Of a DNA stretch of 64,000 bases, positions 1 through 64,000 are shown piece by piece. The position numbers were made by a program, and so were the translations under genes. Source of the DNA: Muricea muricata (lineage: Eukaryota; Cnidaria; Anthozoa; Malacalcyonacea; Plexauridae); assembly GCA_963855995.1 (NCBI GenBank), contig OY979717.1, positions 51,901,140 through 51,965,139 on the forward strand. The letters are read 5' to 3'. Every line of letters begins with the position of its first letter. Position 1 is the first letter of the stretch. The notes beneath the pieces are model-generated. The model was not told the DNA's origin and did no database searches. It was given only the letters and a program-made list of their open reading frames with translations.

Positions 1-397
1 AGAAAAACGATATCCATAGTTTATATGTCGTTAAACTTTGTAAAATATAGAGCTAAGATTTTTGTGTCGTCTAGCGCTGGAAATATTTTAACTATATTTC
101 TAATCTAGTTGCTTAGTTTTTGGGGAAAAAAATATGCCTGTTCGAAAGAAATGAAAATTTTAAGAACGAAAGATTTAATTTGACAACATCATTCTATGAT
201 CTACGCTTTGAATTTCTGTGATGTTGTTCAGTGATTTTATAATCGTCGTCCGTTGTATATGATATTGATATAATAATTTTAAAAGCTTGTTTTGAATTTC
301 CCAACGGTTTTCTAAATTTTGACAATGCTAACAATTCTAAGATTTTACCGACTTATTAAGAAATACACGCGAGTTAGCAAAAGGCGGTCGTTGAAGT
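1..397 (+). other. Spacer downstream of a Glu(CUC) gene cut by the window edge
   Basis: This is the usual Glu(CUC)-to-Gly spacer, the longest in each unit. It holds the landmark GTCGTCTAGCGCTGG at about 67-81, AT-rich sequence, and TTGATATAATAA 130 bp before the Gly gene. No open coding region or RNA gene is visible. The other Glu(CUC)-Gly spacers of the window have the same content, with or without a ~55-bp deletion next to Gly. Confidence 0.8.
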
Positions 398-468
398 GCG
401 TTGGTGGTTCAGTGGTAGAACTCTCGCCTGCCACCTGGGAGACCGGGGTTCGATTCCCCGCCAACGCA
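398..468 (+). tRNA. tRNA-Gly(GCC)
   Basis: Anticodon 430-432. A and B boxes are intact, but the anticodon stem pairs CTCGC with CTGGG (one C-C clash). The 3' flank has TTCTT in place of the usual T4, and about 19 bp are missing just beyond it compared with other units. Confidence 0.85.
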
Positions 469-656
469 AGCGTAAACAGTTTGGAATATTCTTATGTTAG
501 ATATTTATGAGAATATTTCAATATATCCTTCATAACCCCATTCTTTGAAACAATCAGATGGGACTGAACAGTTGAAACCTCTTTTTTTATAAATTCTAGA
601 GAATCCTTTGATATCTGCTCCAAAAATAAAAGGAAAATAGAAAACGACTGAGAGAC

Positions 657-728
657 TCCCATGTGGTCTAGTGGTTAGGATCTGGCGTTTTCACCGCCAT
701 GGCCCGGGTTCGATTCCCGGCATGGGAA
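657..728 (+). tRNA. tRNA-Glu(UUC)
   Basis: Consensus body, anticodon 690-692, followed by a T5 run about 20 nt downstream. Confidence 0.95.
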
Positions 729-912
729 ATTCACGGCTATGTCCATTTTTATTCATCATAATGTAACCAAAAAACCCCTTTATCCAATGCTATTGTACAT
801 CATCATTTTTTACAACATTCGAGTCTAAAATTTTGTCCAGTCCGCCGATTGCATAACTTCAACAATGATTGTAATATAGTTCGGTTATCGACATCAAATG
901 TTCGGCTGACTG

Positions 913-984
913 TCCCATGTGGTCTAGTGATTAGCATCTGGCGCTCTCACCGCCATGGCCCGGGTTCGATTCCCGGCATGGGAA
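913..984 (+). tRNA. tRNA-Glu(CUC), D-loop variant
   Basis: Anticodon 946-948. The D loop reads GTGATTAGCA, so G19 is A; the rest is consensus. Confidence 0.8.
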
Positions 985-1423
985 ATTTTCCACTATGTGC
1001 TGCATTTTTCTTCTTCATCAAACAATAAAAGAAAAACGATATCCTTAGTTTATATGTCGTCAAACTTTGTAAAATATAGAGCTAAGATTTTTGTGTCGTC
1101 TAGCGCTGGAAATATTTTAACAATAACCATAATCTAGTTGCATAGTTTTTGGGGAAAAAATACCTGTTCGAAAGAAATGAAAATTTTAGGAACGAAAGAT
1201 TTAATTTGACGAATTCATTCTATGATCTACGCTTTGAATTTCTGTGATGTTGTTCAGTGATGTTATAATCGTCCTCCGTTGAGTATGATATTGATATAAT
1301 AATTTTGAAAGCTTGTTTTCAATTTCCAAACGGTTTTCTAAATTTTGACAATGCTAACAATTCTAAGATTGTACCGAGTTATAAAGAAATACACGCCAGT
1401 TAGAAAAAGGCGGTCGTTGAAGT

Positions 1424-1494
1424 GCGTTGTTTGTTCAGTGCTAGAATTCTCGCCTTCCACCCGGGAGACCGGGAATCGATTCCCCGCTAACGCC
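1424..1494 (+). pseudogene. Degenerate tRNA-Gly, anticodon TCC
   Basis: Anticodon 1456-1458 is TCC. G19 is C, the B box reads GAATCGATTCC instead of GGTTCGATTCC, acceptor base 7 is T, and the discriminator is C. These changes should impair Pol III promoter function and tertiary folding. Confidence 0.7.
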
Positions 1495-1701
1495 AGCGTA
1501 AAGAATTTGGAATATTTTTATGCCTTGAATGACTTCAAATGTTAGATATTTATGAGAATATTTCAATATATCCTTCATAACCACATTCTTTGAAACAATC
1601 AGATCGGACTGAACAGTTGAAACCTCTTTTTTTATAAATTCTAGAGAATCCTTTGATATCTTCTCCCAAAATAAAAGGAAAATAGAAAATGCCTGAGAGA
1701 C

Positions 1702-1773
1702 TCCCACGTGGTCTAGTGGTTAGGATCTGGCGTTTTCACCGCCATAGCCCGGGTTCGATTACCGGCATGGGAA
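1702..1773 (+). tRNA. tRNA-Glu(UUC), weakened stems
   Basis: Anticodon 1735-1737. Acceptor base 6 is C (C-A clash) and the T stem carries an A where C is normal. Confidence 0.7.
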
Positions 1774-1956
1774 TTCACGGCTATGTCCATTTTTCTTCAT
1801 CATAAAGTAACCAAAAAACCCTTCTTTCCAATGCTATTGTACATCATCATTTTTTACAACATTAGAGTTTAATATTTTGTCCAGTCTGCCGATTGCGTAA
1901 CTTCAAGAATGATTGTAATCTAGTTCTGTTATCCACATCAAACGGTCCGCTGACTG

Positions 1957-2028
1957 TCCCATGTGGTCTAGTGGTTAGGATCTGGCGCTATCACCCCCAT
2001 GGCCCGGGTTCGATTCTCGGCATAGGAA
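1957..2028 (+). pseudogene. Degenerate Glu body with anticodon ATC
   Basis: Anticodon 1990-1992 is ATC, which would read the Asp codon GAU. The anticodon stem (TGGCG/CCCCA), T stem and acceptor 3' strand (CATAGGA) each carry a change. Confidence 0.65.
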
Positions 2029-2471
2029 ATGTTCCACTATGTGCTGCATTTTTCTTCTTCATCAAACAATAAAAGAAAAACGATATCCTTAGTTTATATG
2101 TCGTCAAACTTTGTAAAATATAGAGCTAAGATTTTTGTGTCGTCTAGCGCTGGAAATATTTTAACAATATTTCTAATCTAGTTGCTTAGTTTTTGGGGGA
2201 AAAAAATATGCCTATTCGAAAGAAATGAAAATTTTAAGAACGAAAGATTTAATTTGACGACATCATTCTATGATCTACGCTTTGAATTTCTGTGATGTTG
2301 TTCAGTGATTTTATAATCGTCGTCCGTTGTATATGACATTGATATAATAAATTTAAAAGCTTGTTTTGCATTTCAAAACGGTTTCCTAAATTTCGGCAAT
2401 GCTAACAATTCTAAAATTTTACCGACTTATTAAGAAATACACGCGAGTTAGCAAAAGGCGGTCGTTGAAGT

Positions 2472-2542
2472 GTGTTGGTGGTTCAGTGGTAGAATTCTCG
2501 CTTGCCACGCGGGAGACCGGGATTCGATTCCCCGCTAACGCA
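2472..2542 (+). tRNA. tRNA-Gly(GCC)
   Basis: Anticodon 2504-2506. Starts GTG rather than GCG (wobble pair) and the B box begins GATTC, giving an A-C pair at the top of the T stem. Confidence 0.8.
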
Positions 2543-2749
2543 AGCGTTAAGAATTTGGAATATTTTTATGCCCTGAATGACTTCAAATGTTAGATATTTA
2601 TGAGAATATTTCAATATATGCTTCATAACCACATTCTTTGAAACAATCAGATCGGACTGAACAGCTGAAACCTCTTTTTTTATAAATTCTAGAGAATCCT
2701 TTGATATCTGCTCCAAAAATAAAAGGAAAATAGAAAACGCCTGAGAGAC

Positions 2750-5097: not shown

Positions 5098-5142
5098 TCC
5101 CATGTGGTCTAGTGGTTAGGATCTGGCGCTCTCACCGCCATG
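5098..5142 (+). pseudogene. Truncated tRNA-Glu(CUC), nt 1-45
   Basis: First of 29 copies with this breakpoint. The 5' acceptor strand, D arm and complete anticodon arm remain; the variable loop ends at CCATG and the T arm, B box and 3' acceptor strand are gone. The join to CATATTAAGAG lands in what is elsewhere the 5' flank of Gly, removing the rest of the gene and most of the spacer. Only 46 nt separate it from the following Gly. Confidence 0.9.
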
Positions 5143-5188
5143 CATATTAAGAGATACACGCGAGTTAGCAAAAGGCGGTCGTTGAAGT

Positions 5189-5259
5189 GCGTTGGTGGTG
5201 TAGTGTTAGAATTCTCGCCTGCCACCCGTGAGACCGGAGTTCGATTCCCCGCCAACGCA
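5189..5259 (+). tRNA. tRNA-Gly(GCC), class 2
   Basis: Anticodon 5221-5223. A box TGGTGTAGTGT: last G of the box (G19) is T here, and D-stem pair 12-23 is lost. T stem CGGAG has an A-C clash. Acceptor stem is fully paired. The 3' flank has TTCTT rather than T4. May be poorly transcribed. Confidence 0.6.
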
Positions 5260-5385
5260 AGCGTAAAGAATTTGGAATATTCTTATGCCCTGAATGACTT
5301 CACTTGTTAGATATTTATGAGAATATTTCAATATATCCTTCATAACCACATTCTTTGAAACAATCAGATCGGCCTGAACAGCTGA

Positions 5386-5819: not shown

Positions 5820-6179
5820 CTTCTTCATCAAAGAATAAAAGAAAAACGATATCCTTAGTTTATATGTCGTCAAACTTTGTAAAATTTAGAGCTAAGATTT
5901 TTTGTCGTCTAGCGCTGGAAATATTTTAACAATATTTCTAATCTAGTTGCTTTGTTTTTGGGGAAAAAATATGCCTATTCGAAAGAAATGAAAATTTCAG
6001 GAACGAAAGATGTAATTTGACGACATCATTCTATTACCTACGCTTTGAGTTTCTGTGATGTTGTTCAGTGATGTTATAATCGTCGTCCGTTGTATATGAT
6101 ATTGATATAATAACTTTGAAAGCTTCACTTCAATTTCCAAACGGATTTCTAAATTTTGACAAAAAGCGGTCGTTGAAGT
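5820..6179 (+). other. Long spacer, Glu(CUC) to Gly, short-flank type
   Basis: AT-rich spacer without coding potential. It ends in TTTTGACAAAAAGCGG, where the long-flank form has about 55 more bp between GACAA and AAAAGGCGG. Most class 1 Gly genes that precede a truncated Glu carry this shorter flank. Confidence 0.7.
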
Positions 6180-6250
6180 GCGTTGGTGGTTCAGTGGTAG
6201 AATTCTCGCCTGCCACGCGGGAGACCGGGGTTCGATTCCCCGCTAACGCA
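6180..6250 (+). tRNA. tRNA-Gly(GCC)
   Basis: Consensus class 1 body; anticodon 6212-6214. Confidence 0.95.
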
Positions 6251-6271
6251 AGCGTAAAGAATTTGGAATAC

Positions 6272-6275
6272 TTTT
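6272..6275 (+). terminator. Pol III T4 terminator of class 1 Gly
   Basis: TTTT 22 nt after the gene at 6180, in GGAATACTTTTATGCC. Class 2 copies have TTCTT at the same place. Confidence 0.65.
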
Positions 6276-6457
6276 ATGCCCTGAATGGCTTCAAGTGTTA
6301 GATATTTATGAGCATATTTCAATATAGTCTTTATACCACATTCTTTGAAAGAATGAAATCGGACTGAACAGCTGAATTCTCTTTTTCTGATAAATTCTAG
6401 AGAATCCTTTGATATCTGCTCGTAAAATAAACGGAAAATAGCAAATGCCTGAGAAGC

Positions 6458-6529
6458 TCCCATGTGGTCTAGTGGTTAGGATCTGGCGTTTTCACCGCCA
6501 TGGCCCGGGTTCGATTCCCGGCATGGGAA
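6458..6529 (+). tRNA. tRNA-Glu(UUC)
   Basis: Consensus; anticodon 6491-6493. Confidence 0.95.
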
Positions 6530-6711
6530 AGTCACGGCTATGTCCATTTTTCTTCATCATAAAGTAACCAAAAAACCCTTCTTTCCAATGCTATTGTACA
6601 TGATCATTTTTTACAACATTAGAATTCAACATTTTTCCAGTCTGCCGATTGCATAACTTCAACAATGATTGTAATCTAGTTCATCAACAACATCAACTGT
6701 TCCGCTGACTG

Positions 6712-6756
6712 TCCCATGTGGTCTAGTGGTTAAGATCTGGCGCTCTCACCGCCATG
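6712..6756 (+). pseudogene. Truncated tRNA-Glu(CUC), nt 1-45
   Basis: Same nt-45 breakpoint; G22 in the D arm is A in this copy. Confidence 0.9.
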
Positions 6757-6802
6757 CATATTAAGAGATACACGCGAGTTAGCAAAAGGCGGTCGTTGAA
6801 GT

Positions 6803-6873
6803 GCGTTGGTGGTGTAGTGCTAGAATTCTCGCCTTCCACCCGGGAGACCGGAGTTCGATTCCCCGCCAGCGCA
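6803..6873 (+). tRNA. tRNA-Gly, class 2, anticodon TCC
   Basis: Anticodon 6835-6837 reads TCC (codon GGA). C19 D loop, A-C clash in the T stem, and acceptor CCAGCGC with one G-T pair. Confidence 0.6.
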
Positions 6874-7080
6874 AGCGTAAAGAATTTGGAATATTCTTAT
6901 GCCCTGAATGACTTCACTTGTTAGATATTTATGAGAATATTTCAATATATCCTTCATAACCACATTCTTTGAAACAATCAGATCGGCCTGAACAGCTGAA
7001 ACCTCTTTTTTTAGAGGTTCTAGAGAATCCTTTAAAATCTGCTCCAAAAATAAAAGGAAAATAGAAAACGCCTGAGAGAC

Positions 7081-7152
7081 TCCCATGTGATCTAGTGGTT
7101 AGGATCTGGCGTTTTCACCGCCATGGCCCGGGTTCGATTCCCGGCATGGGAA
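7081..7152 (+). tRNA. tRNA-Glu(UUC)
   Basis: Anticodon 7114-7116; G10 is A (TGTGATCTAG), otherwise consensus. Confidence 0.85.
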
Positions 7153-7336
7153 ATTCACGGCTATGTCCATTTTTCTTCATCATAAAGTAACCAAAAAACC
7201 CCTCTTTCCAATGCTATTGTACATCATAATTTTTTACAACATTCGAGTTTAACATTTTGTGCACTCCGCCGATTGCATAACTTCAACAATGATTGTAGTC
7301 TAGTTCTGTTATGGACATCAAATGTTCGACTCACTG

Positions 7337-7408
7337 TCCCATGTGGTCTAGCGGTTAGGATCTGGCGCTCTCACCGCCATGGCTCGTGTTCGATTCCCGG
7401 CATGGGAA
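7337..7408 (+). tRNA. tRNA-Glu(CUC)
   Basis: Anticodon 7370-7372; T stem TCGTG has one clash. Confidence 0.8.
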
Positions 7409-7793
7409 ATTTTTCACTATGTGCTGCATTTTTCTTCTTCATCAAAGAATAAAAGAAAAACGATATCCTTAGTTTATATGTCGTCAAACTTTGTAAAATT
7501 TAGAGCTAAGATTTTTTGTCGTCTAGCGCTGGAAATATTTTAACAATATTTCTAATCTAGTTGCTTTGTTTTTGGGGAAAAAATATGCCTATTCGAAAGA
7601 AATGAAAATTTTAGGAACGAAAGATGTAATTTGACGACATCATTCTATTACCTACGCTTTGAGTTTCTGTGATGTTGTTCAGTGATGTTATAATCGTCGT
7701 CCGTTGTATATGATATTGATATAATAACTTTGAAAGCTTCACTTCAATTTCCAAACGGATTTCTAAATTTTGACAAAAAGCGGTCGTTGAAGT

Positions 7794-7864
7794 GCGTTGG
7801 TGGTTCAGTGGTAGAATTCTCGCCTGCCACGCGGGAGACCGGGGTTCGATTCCCCGCTAACGCA
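7794..7864 (+). tRNA. tRNA-Gly(GCC)
   Basis: Consensus class 1; anticodon 7826-7828. Confidence 0.95.
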
Positions 7865-8071
7865 AGCGTAAAGAATTTGGAATACTTTTATGCCCTGAAT
7901 GGCTTCAAGTGTTAGATATTTATGAGCATATTTCAATATATTCTTTATACCAGATTCTTTGAAACAATGAAATCGGACTGAACAGCTGAATTCTCTTTTT
8001 CTGATAAATTCTAGAGAATCCTTTGATATCTGCTCCTAAAATAAACGGAAAATAGAAAATGCCTGAGAAGC

Positions 8072-8143
8072 TCCAATGTGGTCTAGTGGTTAGGATCTGG
8101 CGTTTTCACCGCCATGGCCCGGGTTCGATTCCCGGCATGGGAA
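8072..8143 (+). tRNA. tRNA-Glu(UUC), A4 variant
   Basis: Anticodon 8105-8107; starts TCCAATG, giving one A-G acceptor clash. Confidence 0.85.
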
Positions 8144-8325
8144 AGTCACGGCTATGTCCATTTTTCTTCATCATAAAGTAACCAAAAAACCCTTCTTTCC
8201 AATGCTATTGTACATGATCATTTTTTACAACATTAGAATTCAACATTTTTCCAGTCTGCCGATTGCATAACTTCAACAATGATTGTAATCTAGTTCATCA
8301 ACAACATCAACTGTTCCGCTGACTC

Positions 8326-8370
8326 TCCCATGTGGTCTAGTGGTTAGGATCTGGCGCTCTCACCGCCATG
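8326..8370 (+). pseudogene. Truncated tRNA-Glu(CUC), nt 1-45
   Basis: Same breakpoint; 46 nt before the next Gly. Confidence 0.9.
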
Positions 8371-8416
8371 CATATTAAGAGATACACGCGAGTTAGCAAA
8401 AGGCGGTCGTTGAAGT

Positions 8417-8487
8417 GCGTTGGTGGTGTAGTGCTAGAATTCTCGCCTGCCACCCGGGAGACCGGGGTTCGATTCCCCGCCAACGCA
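8417..8487 (+). tRNA. tRNA-Gly(GCC), class 2
   Basis: Anticodon 8449-8451; C19, T stem fully paired. Confidence 0.62.
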
Positions 8488-8694
8488 AGCGTAAACAATT
8501 TGGAATATTCTTATGCCCTGAATGACTTCACTTGTTAGATATTTATGAGAATATTTCAATATATCCTTCATAACCACATTCTTTGAAACAATCAGATCGG
8601 ACTGAACAGCTGAAACCTCTTTTTTTAGAGGTTCTAGAGAATCCTTTAAAATCTGCTCCAAAAATAAAAGGAAAATAGAAAACGCCTGAGAGAC

Positions 8695-8766
8695 TCTCAT
8701 GTGGTCTAGTGGTTAGGATCTGGCGTTTTCACCGCCATGGCCCGGGTTCGATTCCCGGCATGGGAA
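8695..8766 (+). tRNA. tRNA-Glu(UUC), T3 variant
   Basis: Anticodon 8728-8730; starts TCTCATG, a tolerated T-G acceptor pair. Confidence 0.88.
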
Positions 8767-8950
8767 ATTCACGGCTATGTCCATTTTTCTTCATCATAAA
8801 GTAATCAAAAAACCCCTCTTTCCAATGCTATTGTACATCATAATTTTTTACAACATTCGAGTTTAACATTTTGTCCACTCCGCCGATTGCATAACTTCAA
8901 CAATGATTGTAATCTTGTTCTGTTATGGACATCAAATGTTCGACTCACTG

Positions 8951-9022
8951 TCCCATGTGGTCTAGCGGTTAGGATCTGGCGCTCTTTCCGCCATGGCCCG
9001 GGTTCGATTCCCGGCATGGGAA
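8951..9022 (+). tRNA. Glu(CUC) body with anticodon CTT
   Basis: Loop reads CTCTTTC, so the anticodon at 8984-8986 is CTT (Lys codon AAG) with T at position 37. All stems and both promoter boxes are intact. Confidence 0.85.
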
Positions 9023-9407
9023 ATTTTTCACTATGTGCTGCATTTTTCTTCTTCATCAAAGAATAAAAGAAAAACGATATCCTTAGTTTATATGTCGTCA
9101 AACTTTGTAAAATTTAGAGCTAAGATTTTTTTTCGTCTAGCGCTGGAAATATTTTAACAATATTTCTAATCTAGTTGCTTTGTTTTTGGGGAAAAAATAT
9201 GCCTATTCGAAAGAAATGAAAATTTTAGGAACGAAAGATGTAATTTGACGACATCATTCTATCACCTACGCTTTGAGTTTCTGTGATGTTGTTCAGTGAT
9301 GTTATAATCGTCGTCCGTTGTATATGATATATATATAATAACTTTGAAAGCTTCACTTCAATTTCCAAACGGATTTCTAAATTTTGACAAAAAGCGGTCG
9401 TTGAAGT

Positions 9408-9478
9408 GCGTTGGTGGTTCAGTGGTAGAATTCTCGCCTGCCACGCGGGAGACCGGGGTTCGATTCCCCGCTAACGCA
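9408..9478 (+). tRNA. tRNA-Gly(GCC)
   Basis: Consensus class 1; anticodon 9440-9442. Confidence 0.95.
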
Positions 9479-9685
9479 AGCGTGAAGAATTTGGAATACT
9501 TTTATGCCCTGAATGGCTTCAAGTGTTAGATATTTATGAGCATATTTCAATATAGTCTTTATACCACATTCTTTGAAAGAATGAAATCGGACTGAACAGC
9601 TGAATTCTCTTTTTCTGATAAATTCTAGAGAATCCTTTGATATCTGCTCCTAAAATAAACGGAAAATAGAAAATGCCTGAGAAGC

Positions 9686-9757
9686 TCCCATGTGGTCTAG
9701 TGGTTAGGATCTGGCGTCTCCACCGCCATGGCCCGGGTTCGATTCCCGGCATGGGAT
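9686..9757 (+). tRNA. Glu(UUC) body with anticodon TCC
   Basis: Loop TCTCCAC gives TCC (Gly codon GGA) at 9719-9721, with C at the normally invariant U33 and T as discriminator. Stems are intact. Confidence 0.75.
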
Positions 9758-9939
9758 AGTCACGGCTATGTCCATTTTTCTTCATCATAAAGTAACCAAA
9801 AAACCCTTCTTTCCAATGCTATTGTACATGATCCTTTTTTACAACATTAGAATTCAACATTTTTCCAGTCTGCCGATTGCATAACTTCAACAATGATTGT
9901 AATCTAGTTCATCAACAACATCAACTGTTCCGCTGACTG

Positions 9940-53918: not shown

Positions 53919-54304
53919 ATTTTCCACTATGTGCTGCATTTTTCTTCTTCATCAAAGAATAAAAGAAAAACGATATCCTTAGTTTATATGTCGTCAAACT
54001 TTGTAAAATTTAGAGCTAAGATTTTTTTGTCGTCTAGCGCTGGAAATATTTTAACAATATTTCTAATCTAGTTGCTTTGTTTTTGGGGAAAAAATATGCC
54101 TATTCGAAAGAAATGAAAATTTTAGGAAGGAAAGATGTAATTTGACGACATCATTCTATTACCTACGCTTTGAGTTTCTGTGATGTTGTTCAGTGATGTT
54201 ATAATCGTCGTCCGTTGTATATGATATTGATATAATAACTTTGAAAGCTTCACTTCAATTTCCAAACGGATTTCTAAATTTTGACAAAAAGCGGTCGTTG
54301 AAGT

Positions 54305-54375
54305 GCGTTGGTGGTTCAGTGGTAGAATTCTCGCCTGCCACGCGGGAGACCGGGGTTCGATTCTCCGCTAACGCA
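54305..54375 (+). tRNA. tRNA-Gly(GCC)
   Basis: Anticodon 54337-54339; CTCCG T stem. Confidence 0.92.
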
Positions 54376-54582
54376 AGCGTAAAGAATTTGGAATACTTTT
54401 ATGCCTTGAATGGCTTCAAGTGTTAGATATTTATGAGCATATTTCAATATAGTCTTTATACCACATTCTTTGAAAGAATGAAATCGGACTGAACAGCTGA
54501 ATTCTCTTTTTCTGATAAATTCTAGAGAATCCTTTGATATCTGCTCCTAAAATAAACGGAAAATAGAAAATGCCTGAGAAGC

Positions 54583-54654
54583 TCCCATGTGGTCTAGTGG
54601 TTAGGATCATGCGTTTTCACCGCCATGGCCCGGGTTCGATCCCCGGCATGGAAA
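54583..54654 (+). tRNA. tRNA-Glu(UUC), damaged
   Basis: Anticodon 54616-54618; ATGCG anticodon-stem strand and CATGGAA acceptor as at 21979. Confidence 0.5.
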
Positions 54655-54836
54655 AGTCACGGCTATGTCCATTTTTCTTCATCATAAAATAACCAAAAAA
54701 CCCTTCTTTCCAATGCTATTGTACATGATCATTTTTTACAACATTAGAATTCAACAATTTTCCAGTCTGCCGATTGCATAACTTCAACAATGATTGTAAT
54801 CTAGTTCATCAACAACATCAACTGTTCCGCTGACTG

Positions 54837-54881
54837 TCCCATGTGGTCTAGTGGTTAGGATCTGGCGCTCTCACCGCCATG
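54837..54881 (+). pseudogene. Truncated tRNA-Glu(CUC), nt 1-45
   Basis: Same breakpoint. Confidence 0.9.
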
Positions 54882-54927
54882 CATATTAAGAGATACACGC
54901 GAGTTAGCAAAAGGCGGTCGTTGAAGT

Positions 54928-54998
54928 GCGTTGGTGGTGTAGTGCTAGAATTCTCGTTTGCCACCCGGGAGACCGGAGTTCGATTCCCCGCCAACGCA
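54928..54998 (+). tRNA. tRNA-Gly(GCC), class 2
   Basis: Anticodon 54960-54962; CTCGT stem strand, C19 and A-C clash in T stem. Confidence 0.55.
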
Positions 54999-55205
54999 AG
55001 CGTAAAGAATTTGGAATATTCTTATGCCCTGAATGACTTCACTTGTTAGATATTTATGAGAATATTTCAATATATCCTTCATAACCACATTCTTTGAAAC
55101 AATCAGATCGGACTGAACAGCTTAAACCTCTTTTTTTAGAGGTTCTAGAGAATCCTTTAAAATCTGCTCCAAAAATAAAAGGAAAATAGAAAACGCCTGA
55201 GAGAC

Positions 55206-55277
55206 TCCCATGTGGTCTAGTGGTTAGGATCTGGCGTTTTCACCGCCATGGCCCGGGTTCGATTCCCGGCATGGAAA
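55206..55277 (+). tRNA. tRNA-Glu(UUC), damaged acceptor
   Basis: Anticodon 55239-55241; CATGGAA acceptor strand. Confidence 0.75.
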
Positions 55278-55461
55278 ATTCACGGCTATGTCCATTTTTC
55301 TTCATCATAAAGTAACCAAAAAACCCCTCTTTCTAATGCTATTGTACATCATAATTTTTTACAACGTTCGAGTTTAACATTTTGTCCACTCCGCCGATTG
55401 CATAACTTGAACAATGACTGTAATCTAGTTCTGTTATGGACATCAAATGTTCGGCTCACTG

Positions 55462-55533
55462 TCCGATGTGTTCTAGCGGTTAGGATCTGGCGCTCTCACC
55501 GCCATGGCCCGGGTTGGATTCCCGGCATGGGAA
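55462..55533 (+). tRNA. tRNA-Glu(CUC), C56G variant
   Basis: Anticodon 55495-55497; same changes as 46876. Confidence 0.5.
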
Positions 55534-55974
55534 ATTTTCCACTATGTGCTGCATTTTTCTTCTTCATCAAACAATAAAAGAAAAACGATTCCCTTAGTTT
55601 AAATGTCATCAATATTTGTAAAATTTAGGGCTAAGATTTTTTTGTCGTCTAGCGCTGGAAATATTTTAACAATAATTCTAATCTAGTTGCTTCGTTTTTG
55701 GGGAAAAAATACGCCTATTCGAAAGAAATGAAAATTTTAGGAACGAAAGATTTAATTTGACGACATCATTCCATTATCTACGCCTTTAATTTCTGTGATG
55801 TTGTTCAGTGATGTTATAATCGTCGTCCGTTGTATATGATATTGATATAATAATTTTGAAAGCTTCACTTCAATTTCCAAACGGTTTTCTAAATTTTGAC
55901 AATGCTAACAATTCTAAGATTGTACCAAATTATTGAGAAGTACACGCGAAATAGCAAAAGGCGGTCGTTGAAGT

Positions 55975-56045
55975 GCGTTGGTGGTTCAGTGGTAGAATTC
56001 TCGCCTGATACGCGGGAGACCGGGGTTCGATTCCCCGCTAACGCA
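55975..56045 (+). tRNA. Gly body with anticodon GAT
   Basis: Loop CTGATAC: anticodon GAT (Ile codon AUC) at 56007-56009 in an otherwise perfect class 1 Gly gene. The tandem-duplicate sister at 47389 reads GCC, so the change postdates the 8.6-kb duplication or is an assembly error. Confidence 0.85.
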
Positions 56046-56252
56046 AGCGTAAAGAATTTGGAATACTGTTATGCCCTGAATGGCTTCAAGTGTTAGATAT
56101 TTATGAGCATATTTCAATATATTCTTTATACCAGATTCTTTGAAAGAATGAAATCGGACTGAACAGCTGAATTCTCTTTTTCTGATAAATTCTAGAGAAT
56201 CCTTTGATATCTGCTCCTAAAATAAACGGAAAATAGAAAATGCCTGAGAAGC

Positions 56253-56324
56253 TCCCATGTGGTCTAGTGGTTAGGAACTGGCGTTTTCACCGCCGTGGCC
56301 CGGGTTCGATTCCCGGCATGAAAA
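56253..56324 (+). tRNA. tRNA-Glu(UUC), damaged acceptor
   Basis: Anticodon 56286-56288; CATGAAA acceptor strand. Confidence 0.6.
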
Positions 56325-56508
56325 ATTCACGGCTATGTCCATTTTTCTTCATCATAAAGTAACCAAAAAACCCCTCTTTCCAATGCTATTGTACATCATA
56401 ATTTTTTACAACATTCGAGTTTAACATTTTGTTCACTCCGCCGATTGCATAACTTCAACAATGATTGTAATCTAGTTCTGTTATGGACATCAAATGTTCG
56501 ACTCACTG

Positions 56509-56580
56509 TCCCATGTGGTCTAGCGGTTAGGATCTGCCGCTCTCACCGCCATGGCCCGGGTTCGATTCCCGGCATGGGAA
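56509..56580 (+). tRNA. tRNA-Glu(CUC)
   Basis: Anticodon 56542-56544; TGCCG stem clash as at 47923. Confidence 0.8.
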
Positions 56581-56965
56581 ATTTTTCACTATGTGCTGCA
56601 TTTTTTTTCTTCATCAAAGAATAAAAGAAAAACGATATCCTTAGTTTATATGTCGTCAAACTTTGTAAAATTTAGAGCTAAGATTTTTTGTCGTCTAGCG
56701 CTTGAAATATTTTAACAATATTTCTAATCTAGTTGCTTTGTTTTTGGGGAAAAAATATGCCTATTCGAAAGAAATGAAAATTTTAGGTACGAAAGATGTA
56801 ATTTGACGACATCATTCTATTACCTACGCTTTGAGTTTCTGTGATGTTGTTCAGTGATGTTATAATCGTCGTCCGTTGTATATGATATTGATATAATAAC
56901 TTTGAAAGCTTCACTTCAATTTCCAAACGGATTTCTAAATTTTGACAAAAAGCGGTCGTTGAAGT

Positions 56966-57036
56966 GCGTTGGTGGTTCAGTGGTAGAATTCTCGCCTGCC
57001 ACGCGGGAGACCGGGGTTCGATTCCCCGCTAACGCA
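56966..57036 (+). tRNA. tRNA-Gly(GCC)
   Basis: Consensus class 1; anticodon 56998-57000. Confidence 0.95.
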
Positions 57037-57243
57037 AGCGTAAAGAATTTGGAATACTTTTATGCCCTGAATGGCTTCAAGTGTTAGATATTTATGAGCA
57101 TATTTCAATATAGTCTTTATACCACATTCTTTGAAAGAATGAAATCGGACTGAACAGCTGAATTCTCTTTTTCTGATAAATTCTAGAGAATCCTTTGATA
57201 TCTGCTCCTAAAATAAACGGAAAATAGAAAATGCCTGAGAAGC

Positions 57244-57315
57244 TCCCATGTGGTCTAGTGGTTAGGATCTGGCGTTTTCACCGCCATGGCCCGGGTTCGA
57301 TTCCCGGCATGGGAA
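57244..57315 (+). tRNA. tRNA-Glu(UUC)
   Basis: Consensus; anticodon 57277-57279. Confidence 0.95.
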
Positions 57316-57497
57316 AGTCACGGCTATGTCCATTTTTCTTCATCATAAAGTAACCAAAAAACCCTTCTTTCCAATGCTATTGTACATGATCATTTTTTAC
57401 AACATTAGAATTCAACATTTTTCCAGTCTGCCGATTGCATAACTTCAACAATGATTGTAATCTAGTTCATCAACAACATCAACTGTTCCGCTGACTG

Positions 57498-57542
57498 TCC
57501 CATGTGGTCTAGTGGTTAGGATCTGGCGCTCTCACCGCCATG
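57498..57542 (+). pseudogene. Truncated tRNA-Glu(CUC), nt 1-45
   Basis: Same breakpoint. Confidence 0.9.
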
Positions 57543-57588
57543 CATATTAAGAGATACACGCGAGTTAGCAAAAGGCGGTCGTTGAAGT

Positions 57589-57659
57589 GCGTTGGTGGTG
57601 TAGTGCTAGAATTCTCGCCTGCCACCCGGGAAACCGGGGTTCGATTCCCCGCCAGCGCA
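57589..57659 (+). tRNA. tRNA-Gly(GCC), class 2
   Basis: Anticodon 57621-57623; as 49003. Confidence 0.58.
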
Positions 57660-57866
57660 AGCGTAAAGAATTTGGAATATTCTGATGCCCTGAATGACTT
57701 CACTTGTTAGATATTTATGAGAATATTTCAATATATCCTTCATAACCACATTCTTTGAAATAATCAGATCGGACTGAACAGCTGAAACCTCTTTTTTTAG
57801 AGGTTCTAGAGAATCCTTTAAAATCTGCTCCAAAAATAAAAGGAAAATAGAAAACGCCTGAGAGAC

Positions 57867-57938
57867 TCCCATGTGGTCTTGTGGTTAGGATCTGGCGTTT
57901 TCACCGCCATGGCCCGGGTTCGATTCCCGGCATGGGAA
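57867..57938 (+). tRNA. tRNA-Glu(UUC), A14T
   Basis: Anticodon 57900-57902; TCTTGTGG as at 49281. Confidence 0.7.
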
Positions 57939-58122
57939 ATTCACGGCTATGTCCATTTTTCTTCATCATAAAGTAACCAAAAAACCCCTCCTTCCAATGC
58001 TATTGTACATCATAATTTTTTACAACATTCGAGTTTAACATTTTGTCCACTCCGCCGATTGCATAACTTGAACAATGACTGTAATCTAGTTCTGTTATGG
58101 ACATCAAATGTTCGGCTCACTG

Positions 58123-58194
58123 TCCGATGTGGTCTAGCGGTTAGGATCTGGCGCTCTCACCGCCATGGCCCGGGTTGGATTGCCGGCATGGGAA
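58123..58194 (+). tRNA. tRNA-Glu(CUC), C56G variant
   Basis: Anticodon 58156-58158; GCCGG T stem as at 49537. Confidence 0.5.
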
Positions 58195-58635
58195 ATTTTC
58201 CACTATGTGCTGCATTTTTCTTCTTCATCAAACAATAAAAGAAAAACGATTCCCTTAGTTTAAATGTCATCAATATTTCTAAAATTTAGGGCTAAGATTT
58301 TTTTGTCGTCTAGCGCTGGAAATATTTTAACAATAATTCTAATCTAGTTGCTTTGTTTTTGGGGAAAAAATACGCCTATTCGAAAGAAATGAAAATTTTA
58401 GGAACGAAAGATTTAATTTGACGACATCATTCCATTATCTACGCCTTTAATTTCTGTGATGTTGTTCAGTGATGTTATAATCGTCGTACGTTGTATATGA
58501 TATTGATATAATAATTTTGAAAGCTTCACTTCAATTTCCAAATGGTTTTCTAAATTTAGACAATGCTAACAATTCTAAGATTGTACCAAATTATTGAGAA
58601 GTACACGCGAAATAGCAAAAGGCGGTCGTTGAAGT

Positions 58636-58706
58636 GCGTTGGTGGTTCAGTGGTAGAATTCTCGCCTGCCACGCGATAGACCGGGGTTCGATTCCCCGCT
58701 AACGCA
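58636..58706 (+). tRNA. tRNA-Gly(GCC)
   Basis: Anticodon 58668-58670; GCGAT stem strand as at 50050. Confidence 0.85.
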
Positions 58707-58913
58707 AGCGTAAACAATTTGGAATACTTTTATGCCCTGAATGGCTTCAAGTGTTAGATATTTATGAGCATATTTCAATATATTCTTTATACCACATTCT
58801 TTGAAACAATGAAATCGGACTGAACAGCTGAATTCTCTTTTTCTGATAAATTCTAGAGAATCCTTTGATATCTGCTCCTAAAATAAACGGAAAATAGAAA
58901 ATTCCTGAGAAGC

Positions 58914-58985
58914 TCCCATGTGGTCTAGTGGTTAGGATCTGGCGTTTTCACCGCCATGGCCCGGGTTCGATTCCCGGCATGGGAA
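58914..58985 (+). tRNA. tRNA-Glu(UUC)
   Basis: Consensus; anticodon 58947-58949. Confidence 0.95.
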
Positions 58986-59166
58986 AGTCCGTTTATGTCC
59001 ATTTTTCTTCATCATAAAGAAACCAAAAAACCCTTCTTTCCAATGCTATTGTACATGATCATTTTTTACAACATTAGAATTCAACATTTTTCCAGTCTGC
59101 CGATTGCATAACTTCAACAATGATTGCAATCTAGTTCATCAACAACATCAACTGTTCCGCTGACTG

Positions 59167-59211
59167 TCCCATGTGGTCTAGTGGTTAGGATCTGGCGCTC
59201 TCACCGCCATG
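59167..59211 (+). pseudogene. Truncated tRNA-Glu(CUC), nt 1-45
   Basis: Same breakpoint. Confidence 0.9.
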
Positions 59212-59257
59212 CATATTAAGAGATACACGCGAGTTAGCAAAAGGCGGTCGTTGAAGT

Positions 59258-59328
59258 GCGTTTGTGGTGTAGTGCTAGAATTCTCGCCTGCCACCCGGGA
59301 GACCGCGGTTCGATTCCCCGCCAACGCA
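59258..59328 (+). tRNA. tRNA-Gly(GCC), class 2
   Basis: Anticodon 59290-59292; GCGTTTG acceptor and CGCGG T stem as at 50672. Confidence 0.52.
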
Positions 59329-59535
59329 AGCGTAAAGAATTTGGAATATTCTTATGCCCTGAATGACTTCATTTGTTAGATATTTATGAGAATATTTAAA
59401 TATATCCTTCATAACCACATTCTTTGAAACAATCAGATCGGACTGAACAGCTGAAACCTCTTTTTTTAGAGGTTCTAGAGAATCCTTTAAAATCTGCTCC
59501 AAAAATAAAAGGAAAATAGAAAACGCCTGAGAGAC

Positions 59536-59607
59536 TCCCATGTGGTCTAGTGGTTAGGATCTGGCGTTTTCACCGCCATGGCCCGGGTTCGATTCCCGGC
59601 ATGGGAA
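59536..59607 (+). tRNA. tRNA-Glu(UUC)
   Basis: Consensus; anticodon 59569-59571. Confidence 0.95.
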
Positions 59608-59791
59608 ATTTACGGCTATGTCCATTTTTCTTCATCATAAAGTAACCAAAAAACCCTTCTTTCCAATGCTATTGTACATCATCATTTTTTACAACATTAG
59701 AGTTTAATATTTTGTCCAGTCCGCCGATTGCTTAACTTCAACAATGACTGTAATCTAGTTCTGTTATCGACATCAAATGTTCGGCTCACTG

Positions 59792-59845
59792 TCCGATGTG
59801 GTCTAGCGGTTAGGATCTGGCGCTCTCACCGCCACGGACCGGGAA
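59792..59845 (+). pseudogene. tRNA-Glu(CUC) with 18-nt T-arm deletion
   Basis: 54 nt; duplicate of 51206. Confidence 0.88.
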
Positions 59846-60286
59846 ATTTTCCACTATGTGCTGCATTTTTCTTCTTCATCAAACAATAAAAGAAAAACGA
59901 TTCCCTTAGTTTAAATGTCATCAATATTTGTAAAATTTAGGGCTAAGACTTTTTTGTCGTCTCGCGCTGGAAATATTTTAACAATAATTGTAATCTAGTT
60001 GCTTTGTTTTTGGGGAAGAAATACGCCTATTCGAAAGAAATGAAAATTTTAGGAACGAAAGATGTAATTTGACGACATCATTCCATTATCTACGCTTTCA
60101 ATTTCTGTGACGTTGTTCAGTGATGTTATAATCGTCGTCCGTTGTATATGATATTGATATAATAATTTTGAAAGCTTCACTTGAATTTCCAAACGGTTTT
60201 CTAAATTTTGACAATGCTAACAATTCTAAGATTGTACCGAATTATTAAATAGTACACGCGAGTTAGCAAAAGGCGGTCGTTGAAGT

Positions 60287-60357
60287 GCGTTGGTGGTTTA
60301 GTGGTAGAATTCTCGCCTTCCACGCGGGAGACCGGGGTTCGATTCCCCGCCAACGCA
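60287..60357 (+). tRNA. tRNA-Gly with anticodon TCC
   Basis: Anticodon 60319-60321 is TCC; A box TGGTTTAGTGG, B box and every stem intact including CCAACGCA. Best candidate for a working Gly(UCC) gene in the window. Confidence 0.92.
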
Positions 60358-60564
60358 AGCGTAAACAATTTGGAATATTCTTATGCCCTGAATGACTTCA
60401 CTTGTTAGATATTTATGAGAATATTTCAATATATCCTTCATAACCACATTCTTTTAAACAATCAGATCGGACTGAACAGCTGAAACCTCTTTTTTTAGAG
60501 GTTCTAGAGAATCCTTTAAAATCTGCTCCAGAAATAAAAGGAAAATAGAAAACGCCTGAGAGAC

Positions 60565-60636
60565 TCCCATGTGGTCTAGTGGTTAGGATCTGGCGTTTTC
60601 ACCGCCATGGCCCGGGTTCGATTCCCGGCATGAAAA
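60565..60636 (+). tRNA. tRNA-Glu(UUC), damaged acceptor
   Basis: Anticodon 60598-60600; CATGAAA acceptor strand. Confidence 0.6.
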
Positions 60637-60820
60637 ATTCACGGCTATGTCCATTTTTCTTCATCATAAAGTAACCAAAAAACCCCTCTTTCCAATGCTA
60701 TTTTACATCATAATTTTTTACAACATTCGAGTTTAACATTTTGTCCACTACGCCGATTGCATAACTTCAACAATGATTGTAATCTAGTTCTGTTATGGAC
60801 ATCAAATGTTCGACTCACTG

Positions 60821-60892
60821 TCCCATGTGGTCTAGCGGTTAGGATCTGGCGCTCTCACCGCCATGGCCCGGGTTCGATTCCCGGCATGGGAA
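60821..60892 (+). tRNA. tRNA-Glu(CUC)
   Basis: Consensus; anticodon 60854-60856. Confidence 0.95.
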
Positions 60893-61278
60893 ATTTTTTA
60901 CTATGTGCTGCATTTTTCTTCGTCATCAAAGAATAAAAGAAAAACGATATCCTTAGTTTATAGGTCGTCAAACTTTGTAAAATTTAGAGCTAAGATTTTT
61001 TTGTCGTTTAGCGCTGGAAATATTTTAACAATATTTCTTATCTAGTTGCTTTGTTTTTTGGGAAAAATTATGCCTATTCGAAAGAAATGAAAATTTTAGG
61101 AACGAAAGATGTAATTTGACGACATCATTCTATTACCTACGCTTTGAGTTTCTGTGATGTTGTTCAGTGATATTATAATCGTCGTCCGTTGTATATGGTA
61201 TTGATATAATAACTATGAAAGCTTCACTTCAATTTCCAAACGGATTTCTAAATTTTGACAAAAAGCGGTCGTTGAAGT

Positions 61279-61349
61279 GCGTTGGTGGTTCAGTGGTAGA
61301 ATTCTCGCCTGCCACGCGGGAGACCGGGGTTCGATTCCCCGCTAACTCA
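61279..61349 (+). tRNA. tRNA-Gly(GCC)
   Basis: Anticodon 61311-61313; acceptor CTAACTC loses pair 2-71; the T4 run is broken (TAGTTTTATG retains TTTT one base later). Confidence 0.82.
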
Positions 61350-61556
61350 AGCGTAAAGAATTTGGAATAGTTTTATGCCCTGAATGGCTTCAAGTGTTAG
61401 ATATTTATGAGCATATTTCAATATATTCTTTATACCAGATTCTTTGAAACAATGAAATCGGACTGAACAGCTGAATTCTCTTTTTCTGATAAATTCTAGA
61501 GAATCCTTTGATATCTGCTCCTAAAATAAACGGAAAATGGAAAATGCCTGAGAAGC

Positions 61557-61628
61557 TCCCATGTGGTCTAGTGGTTAGGATCTGGCGTTTTCACCGCCAT
61601 GGCCCGGGTTCGATTCCCGGCATGGGAA
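61557..61628 (+). tRNA. tRNA-Glu(UUC)
   Basis: Consensus; anticodon 61590-61592. Confidence 0.95.
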
Positions 61629-61812
61629 ATTTACGACTATGTCCATTTTTCTTCATCATAAAAAAACCAAAAAACCCTTCTTTCCAATGCTATTGTACAT
61701 CATCATTTTTTACAACATTAGAGTTTAATATTTTGTCCAGTCCGCCGATTGCTTAACTTCAACAATGACTGTAATCTAGTTCTGTTATCAACATCAAATG
61801 TTCGGCTCACTG

Positions 61813-61866
61813 TCCGATGTGGTCTAGCGGTTAGGATCTGGCGCTCTTTCCGCCATGGCCCGGGAA
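61813..61866 (+). pseudogene. Glu body, anticodon CTT, 18-nt T-arm deletion
   Basis: 54 nt. Combines the 18-nt deletion of 36507 with the CTCTTTC loop (CTT at 61846-61848) of the Lys-anticodon copies, so the two lesions have recombined. Confidence 0.85.
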
Positions 61867-62307: not shown

Positions 62308-62378
62308 GCGTTGGTGGTTTAGTGGTAGAATTCTCGCCTTCCACGCGGGAGACCGGAGGTCGATTCCCCGCCAACGCA
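62308..62378 (+). tRNA. tRNA-Gly with anticodon TCC, T54G
   Basis: Anticodon 62340-62342 is TCC with good stems, but the B box reads AGGTCGATTCC (T54 lost). Confidence 0.7.
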
Positions 62379-62583
62379 AGCGTAAACAATTTGGAATATT
62401 CTTATGCCCTGAATGGCTTCAAATGTTAGATATTTATGAGAATATTTCAATATCCTTCATAACCACATTCTTTGAAACAATCCGATCGGACTGAACAGCT
62501 GAAACCTCTTTTTTTAGAGGTTATAGAATATCCTCTGATATCTGCTCCAAAAATAAAAGGAAAAAAGAAAACGCCTTAGAGAC

Positions 62584-62655
62584 TCCCATGTGGTCTTGTG
62601 GTTAGGATCTGGCGTTTTCACCGCCATGGCCCGGGTTCGATTCCCGGCATGGAAA
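62584..62655 (+). tRNA. tRNA-Glu(UUC), A14T, damaged acceptor
   Basis: Anticodon 62617-62619; TCTTGTGG A box and CATGGAA acceptor together suggest inactivity. Confidence 0.55.
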
Positions 62656-62839
62656 ATTCACGGCTATGTCCATTTTTCTTCATCATAAAGTAACCAAAAA
62701 ACCCCTCTTTCAAATGCTATTGTACATCATCATTTTTTACAACATTCGAGTTTAACATTTTGTCCACTCCGCCGATTGCATAACTTCAACAATGATATTA
62801 ATCTAGTTCTGTTCGGGACATCAAATGTTCGACTTACTG

Positions 62840-62911
62840 TCCCATGTGGTCTAGCGGTTAGGATCTGGCGCTCTCACCGCCATTGCCCGGGTTCGATTCC
62901 CGGCATGGGAA
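62840..62911 (+). tRNA. tRNA-Glu(CUC)
   Basis: Anticodon 62873-62875; one variable-loop change (CATTGCCC). Confidence 0.93.
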
Positions 62912-63297
62912 ATTTTCCACTATGTTCTGCATTTTTCTTCTTCATTAAACAATAAAAGAAAAACGATTCCCTTAGTTTAAATGTCATCAATATTTGTAAA
63001 ATTTAGGGCTAAGATTTTTTTGTCGTCTAGCGCTGGAAATATTGTAACAATAATTCTAATCTAGTTGCTTTGTTTTTGGGGAAGAAATACGCCTATTCGA
63101 AAGAAATGAAAATTTTAGGAACGAAAGATGTAATTTGACGAAATCATTCTATTACCTACGCTTTGAGTTTCTGTGATGTTGTTCAGTGATGTTATAATCG
63201 TCGTCCGTTGTATATGATATTGATATAATAACTTTGAAAGCTTCACTTCAATTTCTAAACGGATTTCTAAATTTTGACAAAAAGCGGTCGTTGAAGT

Positions 63298-63368
63298 GCG
63301 TTGGTGGTTCAGTGGTAGAATTCTCGCCTGCCACGCGGGTGACCGGTGTTCGATTCCCCGCCAACGCA
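63298..63368 (+). tRNA. tRNA-Gly(GCC)
   Basis: Anticodon 63330-63332; GGGTGACC and a T-C clash in the T stem; CCAACGCA end. Confidence 0.85.
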
Positions 63369-63576
63369 AGCGTGAAGAATTTGAAATATTTTTATGCCCT
63401 GAATGGCTTCAAGTGTTAGATATTTATGAGAATATTTCAATATATTCTTCATAACCACATTCTTTGAAACAATGAGATCGGACTGAACAGCTGAATTCTA
63501 TTTTTTTGATAAATTCTAAAAAAACCTTTGATATCTGCTCCTAAAATAAAGGGAAAATGGAAAATGCCTGAGAAGC

Positions 63577-63648
63577 TCCCATGTGGTCTAGTGGTTAGGA
63601 TCTGGCGTTTTCACCGCCATGGCCCGGGTTCGATTCCCGGCATGAGAA
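63577..63648 (+). tRNA. tRNA-Glu(UUC)
   Basis: Anticodon 63610-63612; CATGAGA acceptor with one clash. Confidence 0.85.
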
Positions 63649-63831
63649 ATTTACGGCTATGTCCATTTTTCTTCATCATAAAGTAACCAAAAAACCCTTC
63701 TTTCCAATGCTATTGTACATCATCATTTTTTACAACATTAGAATTCAACATTTTGTCTAGTCTGCCGATTGCATAAATTCAACAATGATTGTAATCTAGT
63801 TCATCAACAACATCAACTGTTCCGCTGACTG

Positions 63832-63876
63832 TCCCATGTGGTCTAGTGGTTAGGTTCTGGCGCTCTCACCGCCATG
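63832..63876 (+). pseudogene. Truncated tRNA-Glu(CUC), nt 1-45
   Basis: Same breakpoint; most divergent flank of the class (TAATAAAATTCGG). Confidence 0.88.
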
Positions 63877-63922
63877 CATATTAAGAGATACGCGCGAGTT
63901 AATAAAATTCGGTCGTTGAAGT

Positions 63923-63993
63923 GCGTTGGTGGTGTAGTGCTAGAATTCTCGCCTGCCACCCGGGAGACCGGGCTTCGATTCCCCGCCAACGCA
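63923..63993 (+). tRNA. tRNA-Gly(GCC), class 2
   Basis: Anticodon 63955-63957; C19, and the T stem ends CGGGC so the base before TTC is C. The array runs off the window just beyond. Confidence 0.58.
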
Positions 63994-64000
63994 AGCGTAA

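What the first reader, a model, noticed from the sequence alone, without database searches (positions are those of the whole stretch)
1..64000. 64 kb with nothing but Gly and Glu tRNA genes
All 222 loci are on one strand in strict Gly, Glu(UUC), Glu(CUC) order, and the array leaves the window at both ends. Tandem tDNA clusters are known (for example in Xenopus and Entamoeba), but a three-gene unit limited to two amino acids, this long and this heterogeneous, is unusual. Both tRNAs are also the commonest sources of 5' tRNA halves in animals, so a role beyond codon supply is conceivable (inference).
Basis: partly seen in the sequence, partly recalled or inferred. Interest (0 to 1): 0.85.

Follow-up and report, generated by a model that had tools for sequence, protein, structure and literature searches.

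The report
Giant tRNA gene array in octocoral
A half-megabase stretch of an octocoral chromosome is one long row of repeated glycine and glutamate tRNA genes, most of them damaged; it is one of several such arrays in this genome and seems to be how this animal stores these genes, rather than a new kind of element.

Summary
The window carries 222 tRNA-gene loci (75 Gly, 147 Glu), all on one strand, in Gly-Glu(UUC)-Glu(CUC) order with one slip. It lies inside an array of about 521 kb (about 1,660 loci, extrapolated) on contig 2 of a 453-Mb assembly. The mitochondrial contig carries mtMutS, so the host is an octocoral.

By a strict cloverleaf test 70 of 222 loci are intact. 29 are 5' halves of Glu(CUC) from one deletion. 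The units evolve like satellite DNA, with higher-order repeats and stem mutations close to the spacer spectrum. Array Glu genes differ from canonical dispersed Glu genes partly through compensatory pair changes, so the founder was probably a working tRNA gene. No Gly(GCC) gene was listed elsewhere, so this array probably supplies that tRNA.

The same genome has a Lys(UUU) array of about 0.5 Mb, 1,448 Asp-pattern matches (most of those listed in one place), and Thr and Arg/Leu/Pro repeats. Tandem tRNA arrays are described in the cnidarians Hydractinia and Nematostella, in Entamoeba, in Phytophthora and at human 1q23.3. This is a large, decayed new member of that kind. Nothing here supports a role in tRNA halves.

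The parts
1..64000 (+). Interior of a ~521-kb tandem array of Gly-Glu(UUC)-Glu(CUC) tRNA units; 222 loci in the window
398..468 (+). First Gly(GCC) locus (first gene of the unit)
657..728 (+). First Glu(UUC) locus ('Glu1'), identical to the commonest Glu1 sequence
746..750 (+). T5 run 17 nt after Glu1, probable Pol III terminator; a T5+ run is present in 139 of 140 sampled Glu1 loci, but some other homopolymer runs are as well kept
913..984 (+). First Glu(CUC) locus ('Glu2'); the Glu2 consensus differs from Glu1 only at positions 32 and 34
986..1009 (+). T4 (986-989) and T5 (1005-1009) runs after Glu2, probable terminators
5098..5142 (+). Example of the 29 truncated Glu2 loci: 45-nt 5' half ending at one identical deletion junction, no B box, 90 bp start-to-start before the next Gly
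5188..5260 (+). Example of the Gly variant that follows a truncated Glu2; it has lost G19 of the D loop
4546..11005 (+). Run of ~1,614-bp dimeric higher-order repeats (long unit + short unit), 97.9% identical at that shift
6160..15498 (+). Segment duplicated at 25589-34934 (98.4% over 9.35 kb)
42021..61857 (+). 8.6-kb-shifted tandem duplication (42021-53267 against 50628-61857, 97.9% over 11.25 kb)
38050..38419 (+). The only break of GEE order: 369-bp unit with Glu1 lost

Best explanation
This is a multicopy tRNA gene locus that evolves like a satellite. Shown here: one chromosome position of an octocoral holds about 521 kb of head-to-tail units of ~0.6-1.05 kb carrying Gly(GCC), Glu(UUC) and Glu(CUC). 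Inferred: a working Gly-Glu cluster was amplified by unequal crossing-over and gene conversion, and its Glu(UUC) gene came from the Glu(CUC) body by a two-base anticodon-loop change or was kept identical to it by conversion. Inferred: Pol III transcribes the intact copies from internal A and B boxes, and they feed the Gly(GCC) and Glu tRNA pool. With perhaps a hundred intact Gly copies and a few hundred intact Glu copies (extrapolated), the loss of any one copy costs almost nothing. Damaged and truncated copies therefore spread by the same recombination, while selection acts only on the total. The genome handles several other isoacceptors in a similar way.
For: Array extent and single strand. 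453 loci in the window and 15 further samples (142,341 bp): 133 intact, 64 near-intact, 36 truncated, 220 damaged; about 1,660 loci if spread over 521 kb. Higher-order repeats and one-junction deletion classes. Two intact array Glu genes and three dispersed Glu genes keep 105 of 105 stem cells paired; 4 pairs changed on both sides, two of which (7-65, 27-43) separate array from dispersed genes. Array Glu1 and Glu2 consensus differ at 2 of 72 positions, both in the anticodon loop. Within the array stem variants keep pairs about as often as spacer rates predict. Gly A-box pattern: 447 forward, 0 reverse; every listed place is in or near this array except one that is not a tRNA. Lys(UUU) array of ~0.5 Mb, Asp-pattern matches concentrated on C3, Thr and Arg/Leu/Pro repeats.
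Against: No expression data. Gly genes are no less diverse than spacers (0.075 against 0.064), and the Gly terminator run is the third least conserved of 26 runs, odd if this is the only Gly(GCC) source. Glu1 is less diverse than 95.6-100% of spacer windows in pooled sets and A units, but not in B or C units. Damage is uneven: beyond C2:52.226 Mb 1 of 20 sampled loci is intact, so extrapolated totals of intact genes may be too high. 13 of 23 stem cells changed on both sides inside the array are still paired, a hint of some constraint that cuts against pure neutrality. Canonical Glu(UUC) (3) and Glu(CUC) (2) genes exist elsewhere. Pattern lists show only ~100 matches, so a dispersed Gly(GCC) gene is not excluded.
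Confidence: 0.7

Rival explanations
1. A tRNA-derived satellite with no translational role: transcription is silenced, and the dispersed canonical genes do the work.
For: Most copies damaged; Gly and Lys genes no more conserved than spacers; stem variants close to the spacer spectrum; dispersed Glu(UUC), Glu(CUC) and Lys(UUU) matches exist.
Against: No dispersed Gly(GCC) gene listed; 133 of 453 sampled loci still intact; Glu1 somewhat less diverse than spacers in pooled sets.
Confidence: 0.2
2. A chromosomal structural element (pericentromeric repeat, boundary or Pol III clustering site) for which tRNA identity matters only as TFIIIC binding.
For: Half-megabase blocks of Lys and Gly/Glu units on different contigs and Asp-pattern matches concentrated on a third (Asp extent unmeasured); the human 1q23.3 tRNA repeat is implicated as a boundary (PMC4041453, abstract and passages).
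Against: Whole Gly and Lys genes are not better kept than spacers. Centromeres, Hi-C and TFIIIC binding were not tested.
Confidence: 0.06
3. A source of 5' tRNA halves or fragments; the 29 truncated Glu(CUC) loci would encode halves directly.
For: 29 copies of a 45-nt 5' half, 25 of them identical, with very low diversity.
Against: All 29 share one junction, and diversity is lowest at it and higher further away, as expected for one deletion with linkage; the halves lack the B box; further copies were seen in only two of 15 samples outside the window.
Confidence: 0.02
4. Assembly artefact: a small cluster multiplied in the assembly.
For: Read depth could not be checked; 4 pairs of units are identical.
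Against: Units differ by up to 12%, with regional variants and found edges; several unrelated arrays in the same assembly.
Confidence: 0.02

Closest known systems
tRNA tandem arrays of Hydractinia and Nematostella, Cnidaria (PMC11067881, section 14 read)
   Same: Same phylum; roughly evenly spaced RNA gene arrays; tRNAs of all 20 amino acids in arrays in Hydractinia; significance unclear there too
   Different: [quoted passage not shown] the authors found no RNA arrays in the other cnidarian genomes they looked at. Here an estimated ~1,660 loci in one array, units 88-100% alike, most loci damaged, three-gene unit with higher-order repeats, in an octocoral
Entamoeba tRNA gene arrays (PMC2652664, abstract and passages)
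   Same: Array units with up to 5 tRNA genes and spacers; a few tRNAs dispersed; most of the tRNA set in arrays
   Different: No short tandem repeats between genes here; there most copies of an array share one sequence; Gly(GCC) there is alone in its unit, not with Glu
Phytophthora infestans tRNA arrays (PMC9584435, passages)
   Same: Isoacceptor families confined to one chromosome as tandem arrays; dimeric and trimeric units more diverse than monomeric ones; unequal crossing-over invoked
   Different: Oomycete; the families named in the passages have 85 and 271 copies; no comparable load of truncated copies in the passages seen
Human 1q23.3 tRNA repeat (PMC4041453, abstract and passages)
   Same: Tandem unit that includes Gly and Glu tRNA genes
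   Different: 7.3-kb GC-rich unit with Leu and Asp genes too, on both strands, 9-43 copies per allele, CTCF binding; here 0.6-1.05 kb, 36-41% GC, one strand

Membership tests
Tandem tRNA gene arrays (Entamoeba/Hydractinia type) | Head-to-tail units of one to five tRNA genes plus spacer, many copies at one locus | tested here: met
Tandem tRNA gene arrays (Entamoeba/Hydractinia type) | Several isoacceptors of the genome arranged this way | tested here: met
   Lys(UUU), Thr(AGU) and Arg/Leu/Pro repeats called by ARAGORN; Asp and a CTT-reading Lys group seen only as pattern matches; whether all 20 amino acids are in arrays was not tested
Tandem tRNA gene arrays (Entamoeba/Hydractinia type) | Copies nearly identical (as described for Hydractinia, Entamoeba) | tested here: not met
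   units 88-100% identical, median 92.5%; 70 of 222 intact
Entamoeba arrays proper | Short tandem repeats in the intergenic regions | tested here: not met
   Tandem Repeats Finder, period up to 500, score 50 or more: no rows in the window
Satellite DNA evolution | Higher-order repeats and spread of single-origin variants by unequal exchange | tested here: met
   the exchange mechanism itself is inferred
tRNA-derived SINE family | Copies dispersed over the genome by retroposition | tested here: not met
   Gly and Glu patterns listed almost only at one position of C2; the lists are capped at ~100 rows
Human 1q23.3-type boundary repeat | CTCF binding and GC-rich unit | not tested
   GC is 36-41% in the window, so not GC-rich; no CTCF motif search was run
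Functional tRNA gene locus | Pol III transcription into charged tRNA | not testable with these tools
   needs RNA data

The most novel reading that the evidence does not exclude
Single-chromosome, single-strand arrays of over a thousand copies each are a chromosomal system of octocorals: each carries one isoacceptor set, is kept for chromosome architecture or Pol III clustering as much as for translation, and coexists with a few frozen canonical copies elsewhere; loss of constraint on single copies is the normal state.
Probability: 0.12. Interest if true: 0.75.

Novelty: new member of a known kind. Interest (0 to 1): 0.5.

Why it matters
It gives an assembled view of how a tRNA array grows and decays: probable founder gene, compensatory change, switched anticodon loop, higher-order repeats, spreading truncated copies. 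It makes testable whether translation draws on the array, on the few canonical dispersed genes, or on both. It also warns that tRNA gene counts in such genomes cannot be read as codon supply.

Tried and rejected
Viral and prokaryotic collections hold no exact match to the patterns tried: one Glu-gene, one Gly-gene and one spacer pattern in viral contigs, one spacer pattern in genome contigs, all 0. I first took the mitochondrial contig for a medusozoan one (note); gene order and mtMutS then showed an octocoral. Terminator conservation looked like strong evidence, but a control with all homopolymer runs weakened it: several spacer runs are equally kept. The low diversity of the truncated Glu loci looked like selection but fits linkage to one junction. 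The non-CpG columns are invalid because of a coding error; one search replaces them. CpG observed/expected is 1.08, and CpG-to-TpG changes are 22 of 491 gene and 135 of 2,427 spacer differences, so methylation decay is not the main cause of the damage. Codon usage and read depth were not tested. An initiator-Met pattern was sent twice and never answered. A whole-unit DNA search was answered but not scored because of too many candidates. One search scored only 63 of 55,957 first-look candidates, so it does not count the genome's tRNA genes. In one search one source shows 'nan' for identity to consensus and that column is not used. Two papers looked at for a lead (PMC12193307, PMC12856254; passages) and one on tRNA copy number (PMC9858662; passages) held nothing on such arrays in the passages shown.
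Full report
Observation. The window holds 222 tRNA-gene loci on the + strand, 75 Gly-type and 147 Glu-type, in the order Gly-Glu-Glu with a single slip at 38050-38419. ARAGORN finds 181 and Rfam 186. There are no inverted duplicates at 97% identity or more. Tandem Repeats Finder, with a longest period of 500, reports no rows.

Anatomy. The 74 complete Gly-to-Gly units fall into long units (1026-1050 bp, 22), units shortened just upstream of Gly (984-992 bp, 23), short units (622-625 bp, 28) and one of 369 bp. Short units carry one deletion that runs from the middle of Glu2 to about 50 bp before the next Gly. It leaves 29 Glu(CUC) 5' halves with the same junction, 25 of them identical over 45 nt. 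Diversity is lowest at the junction and higher several hundred bases away (28 of 29 junctions used). Four further Glu2 loci have lost their 3' end from within the T arm by another deletion. The units form higher-order repeats, from a 1,614-bp dimer to duplications shifted by 8.6 and 19.4 kb at about 98% identity. Unit-to-unit identity over shared columns is 88-100%, median 92.5%.

State of the genes. A strict test (21 stem pairs, nine invariant bases, expected anticodon; first class that applies) leaves 70 of 222 intact; 29 have one mismatch, 15 two or three, 16 a changed anticodon, 48 have lost an invariant base, 15 are badly damaged and 29 are truncated. The window and 15 further samples (142,341 bp) hold 453 loci: 133 intact, 64 near-intact, 36 truncated, 220 damaged, or about 1,660 loci if spread over the whole array. 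Of 153 Gly loci 30 are intact. The right end is more decayed: 1 of 20 loci sampled beyond C2:52.226 Mb is intact, against 62 of 211 in the eight samples nearer the window.

Context. The window is contig 2, 51,901,140-51,965,139, of a 453-Mb, 74-contig assembly. Sampling places the array at about 51,845,540-52,366,640; continuity between samples is inferred. Smaller blocks of the same units lie at 51.777-51.797 Mb. About 4 kb right of the array end is a 1,192-aa ORF that reads like a protein-primed DNA polymerase (recalled, Polinton-like); Pfam gives only a sub-threshold endonuclease VII match, and a GIY-YIG ORF follows. A PIF1-like helicase ORF lies about 43 kb left of the main array. The mitochondrial contig (19,292 bp) has cytochrome b, nad1, cox1, nad4L and a MutS gene with HNH domain on one strand and cox2 and atp6 on the other (nad6, nad3 and atp8 read by eye). 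A mitochondrial MutS gene and this order are the mark of octocorals (recalled), so the host is an octocoral; the species is not known.

Other tRNA loci. Contig 1 has a Lys(UUU) array of ~0.5 Mb with a 346-bp unit. Its pattern gives 1,312 reverse and 8 forward matches; three exact matches listed lie on contigs 3 and 7, and a group on contig 2 reads CTT. An Asp pattern written from recall gives 1,441 reverse and 7 forward matches, most of the listed ones at C3:25.60-25.64 Mb; these were not checked with ARAGORN. Thr(AGU) repeats every 240 bp (six seen) and Arg/Leu/Pro repeats every ~2.15 kb lie on contig 1. Reversed-pattern controls gave 0 for the Glu, Gly, Lys and Asp patterns, and 31 and 23 against 1,477 and 2,297 for the short B-box pattern. 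Dispersed Glu genes: three identical Glu(UUC), two on contig 4 and one on contig 12, and two Glu(CUC) on contig 3. For Gly(GCC), 447 forward and 0 reverse matches were found, listed only on contig 2 in the array region, apart from one at 9.37 Mb that neither ARAGORN nor Rfam calls a tRNA. Lists show only about 100 matches, so this is strong but not complete evidence that Gly(GCC) has no other home.

Selection. Two intact array Glu genes and three dispersed Glu genes, chosen by me, pair in 105 of 105 stem cells. Four pairs changed on both sides; two of them (7-65 and 27-43) separate array from dispersed genes. The founder probably evolved as a tRNA. Array Glu(UUC) and Glu(CUC) consensus differ only at positions 32 and 34, and array Glu(UUC) is closer to dispersed Glu(CUC) (7 differences) than to dispersed Glu(UUC) (10). 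Inside the array the picture changes. Distinct one-sided stem variants keep the pair in 17 of 54 (Gly) and 15 of 82 (Glu), against 24.5% and 23.6% expected from spacer mutations (truncated loci, two small sources, and loci with over 2 gaps or over 12 differences were dropped, the last not counted). On the other side, 23 cells changed on both sides and 13 of these are still paired. Gly is no less diverse than spacers; Glu1 is less diverse in pooled sets and A units but not in B or C units; Glu2 lies between. Lys genes are as diverse as their spacers (0.080 against 0.084; 120 of 199 units sampled).

Mechanism. The best-supported reading is a tRNA gene locus that evolves like a satellite: a working cluster amplified by unequal exchange, copies individually almost free of constraint because many intact ones remain, damaged ones spreading with their neighbours. 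Transcription and use of the intact copies are inferred, not shown. The lack of another listed Gly(GCC) gene argues for use; the neutral look of Gly argues for weak selection per copy.

Comparison with what is known. Hydractinia has tandem arrays of tRNAs for all 20 amino acids; its authors also found tRNA arrays in Nematostella and none in other cnidarian genomes, and call their significance unclear (PMC11067881, section 14 read). Nematostella has over 17,000 tRNA genes and pseudogenes (PMC2888827, abstract and passages). Entamoeba (PMC2652664, abstract and passages), Phytophthora infestans (PMC9584435, passages) and human 1q23.3 (PMC4041453, abstract and passages) are further cases. Two searches for octocoral genomes with tRNA terms listed no description of such arrays in octocorals; only an open-licence library was searched. 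The find is a new, large and decayed member of a known kind.

Noticed in passing
G000:C1:~68.25-68.755 Mb (L001-L008, L023-L027, L042-L044): Second giant array: Lys(UUU), 346-bp unit, ~0.5 Mb, one strand in the samples; genes as diverse as spacers
   Followed up: partly
G000:C3:25.602-25.637 Mb and beyond: Asp-type pattern matches on the minus strand, neighbours often ~195 bp apart; 1,441 reverse matches genome-wide; extent not measured, not checked with a tRNA finder
   Followed up: no
L047 (C1:53.09 Mb) and L048 (C1:38.375 Mb): Arg/Leu/Pro tRNA repeats of ~2.15 kb on both strands, and six Thr(AGU) repeats of 240 bp
   Followed up: partly
L020 4598-9103 (right of the array end at 641): ORF of 1192 aa read as a protein-primed DNA polymerase by recall, with a sub-threshold endonuclease VII match, and a GIY-YIG ORF, 4-8 kb from the array end
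   Followed up: partly
L046 (C1:38,414,782-38,416,095): Second cox1 match on contig 1 with one stop, probably a nuclear copy, about 38 kb from the Thr repeats
   Followed up: no
L055 (C4), L056 (C12): Three dispersed Glu(UUC) genes at two places are identical over 72 nt, in contrast to the array copies
   Followed up: yes
window 9686, 27501, 29115: Three Glu1 loci whose anticodon reads TCC; their spacing fits the 1.6-kb and 19.4-kb repeat shifts
   Followed up: no
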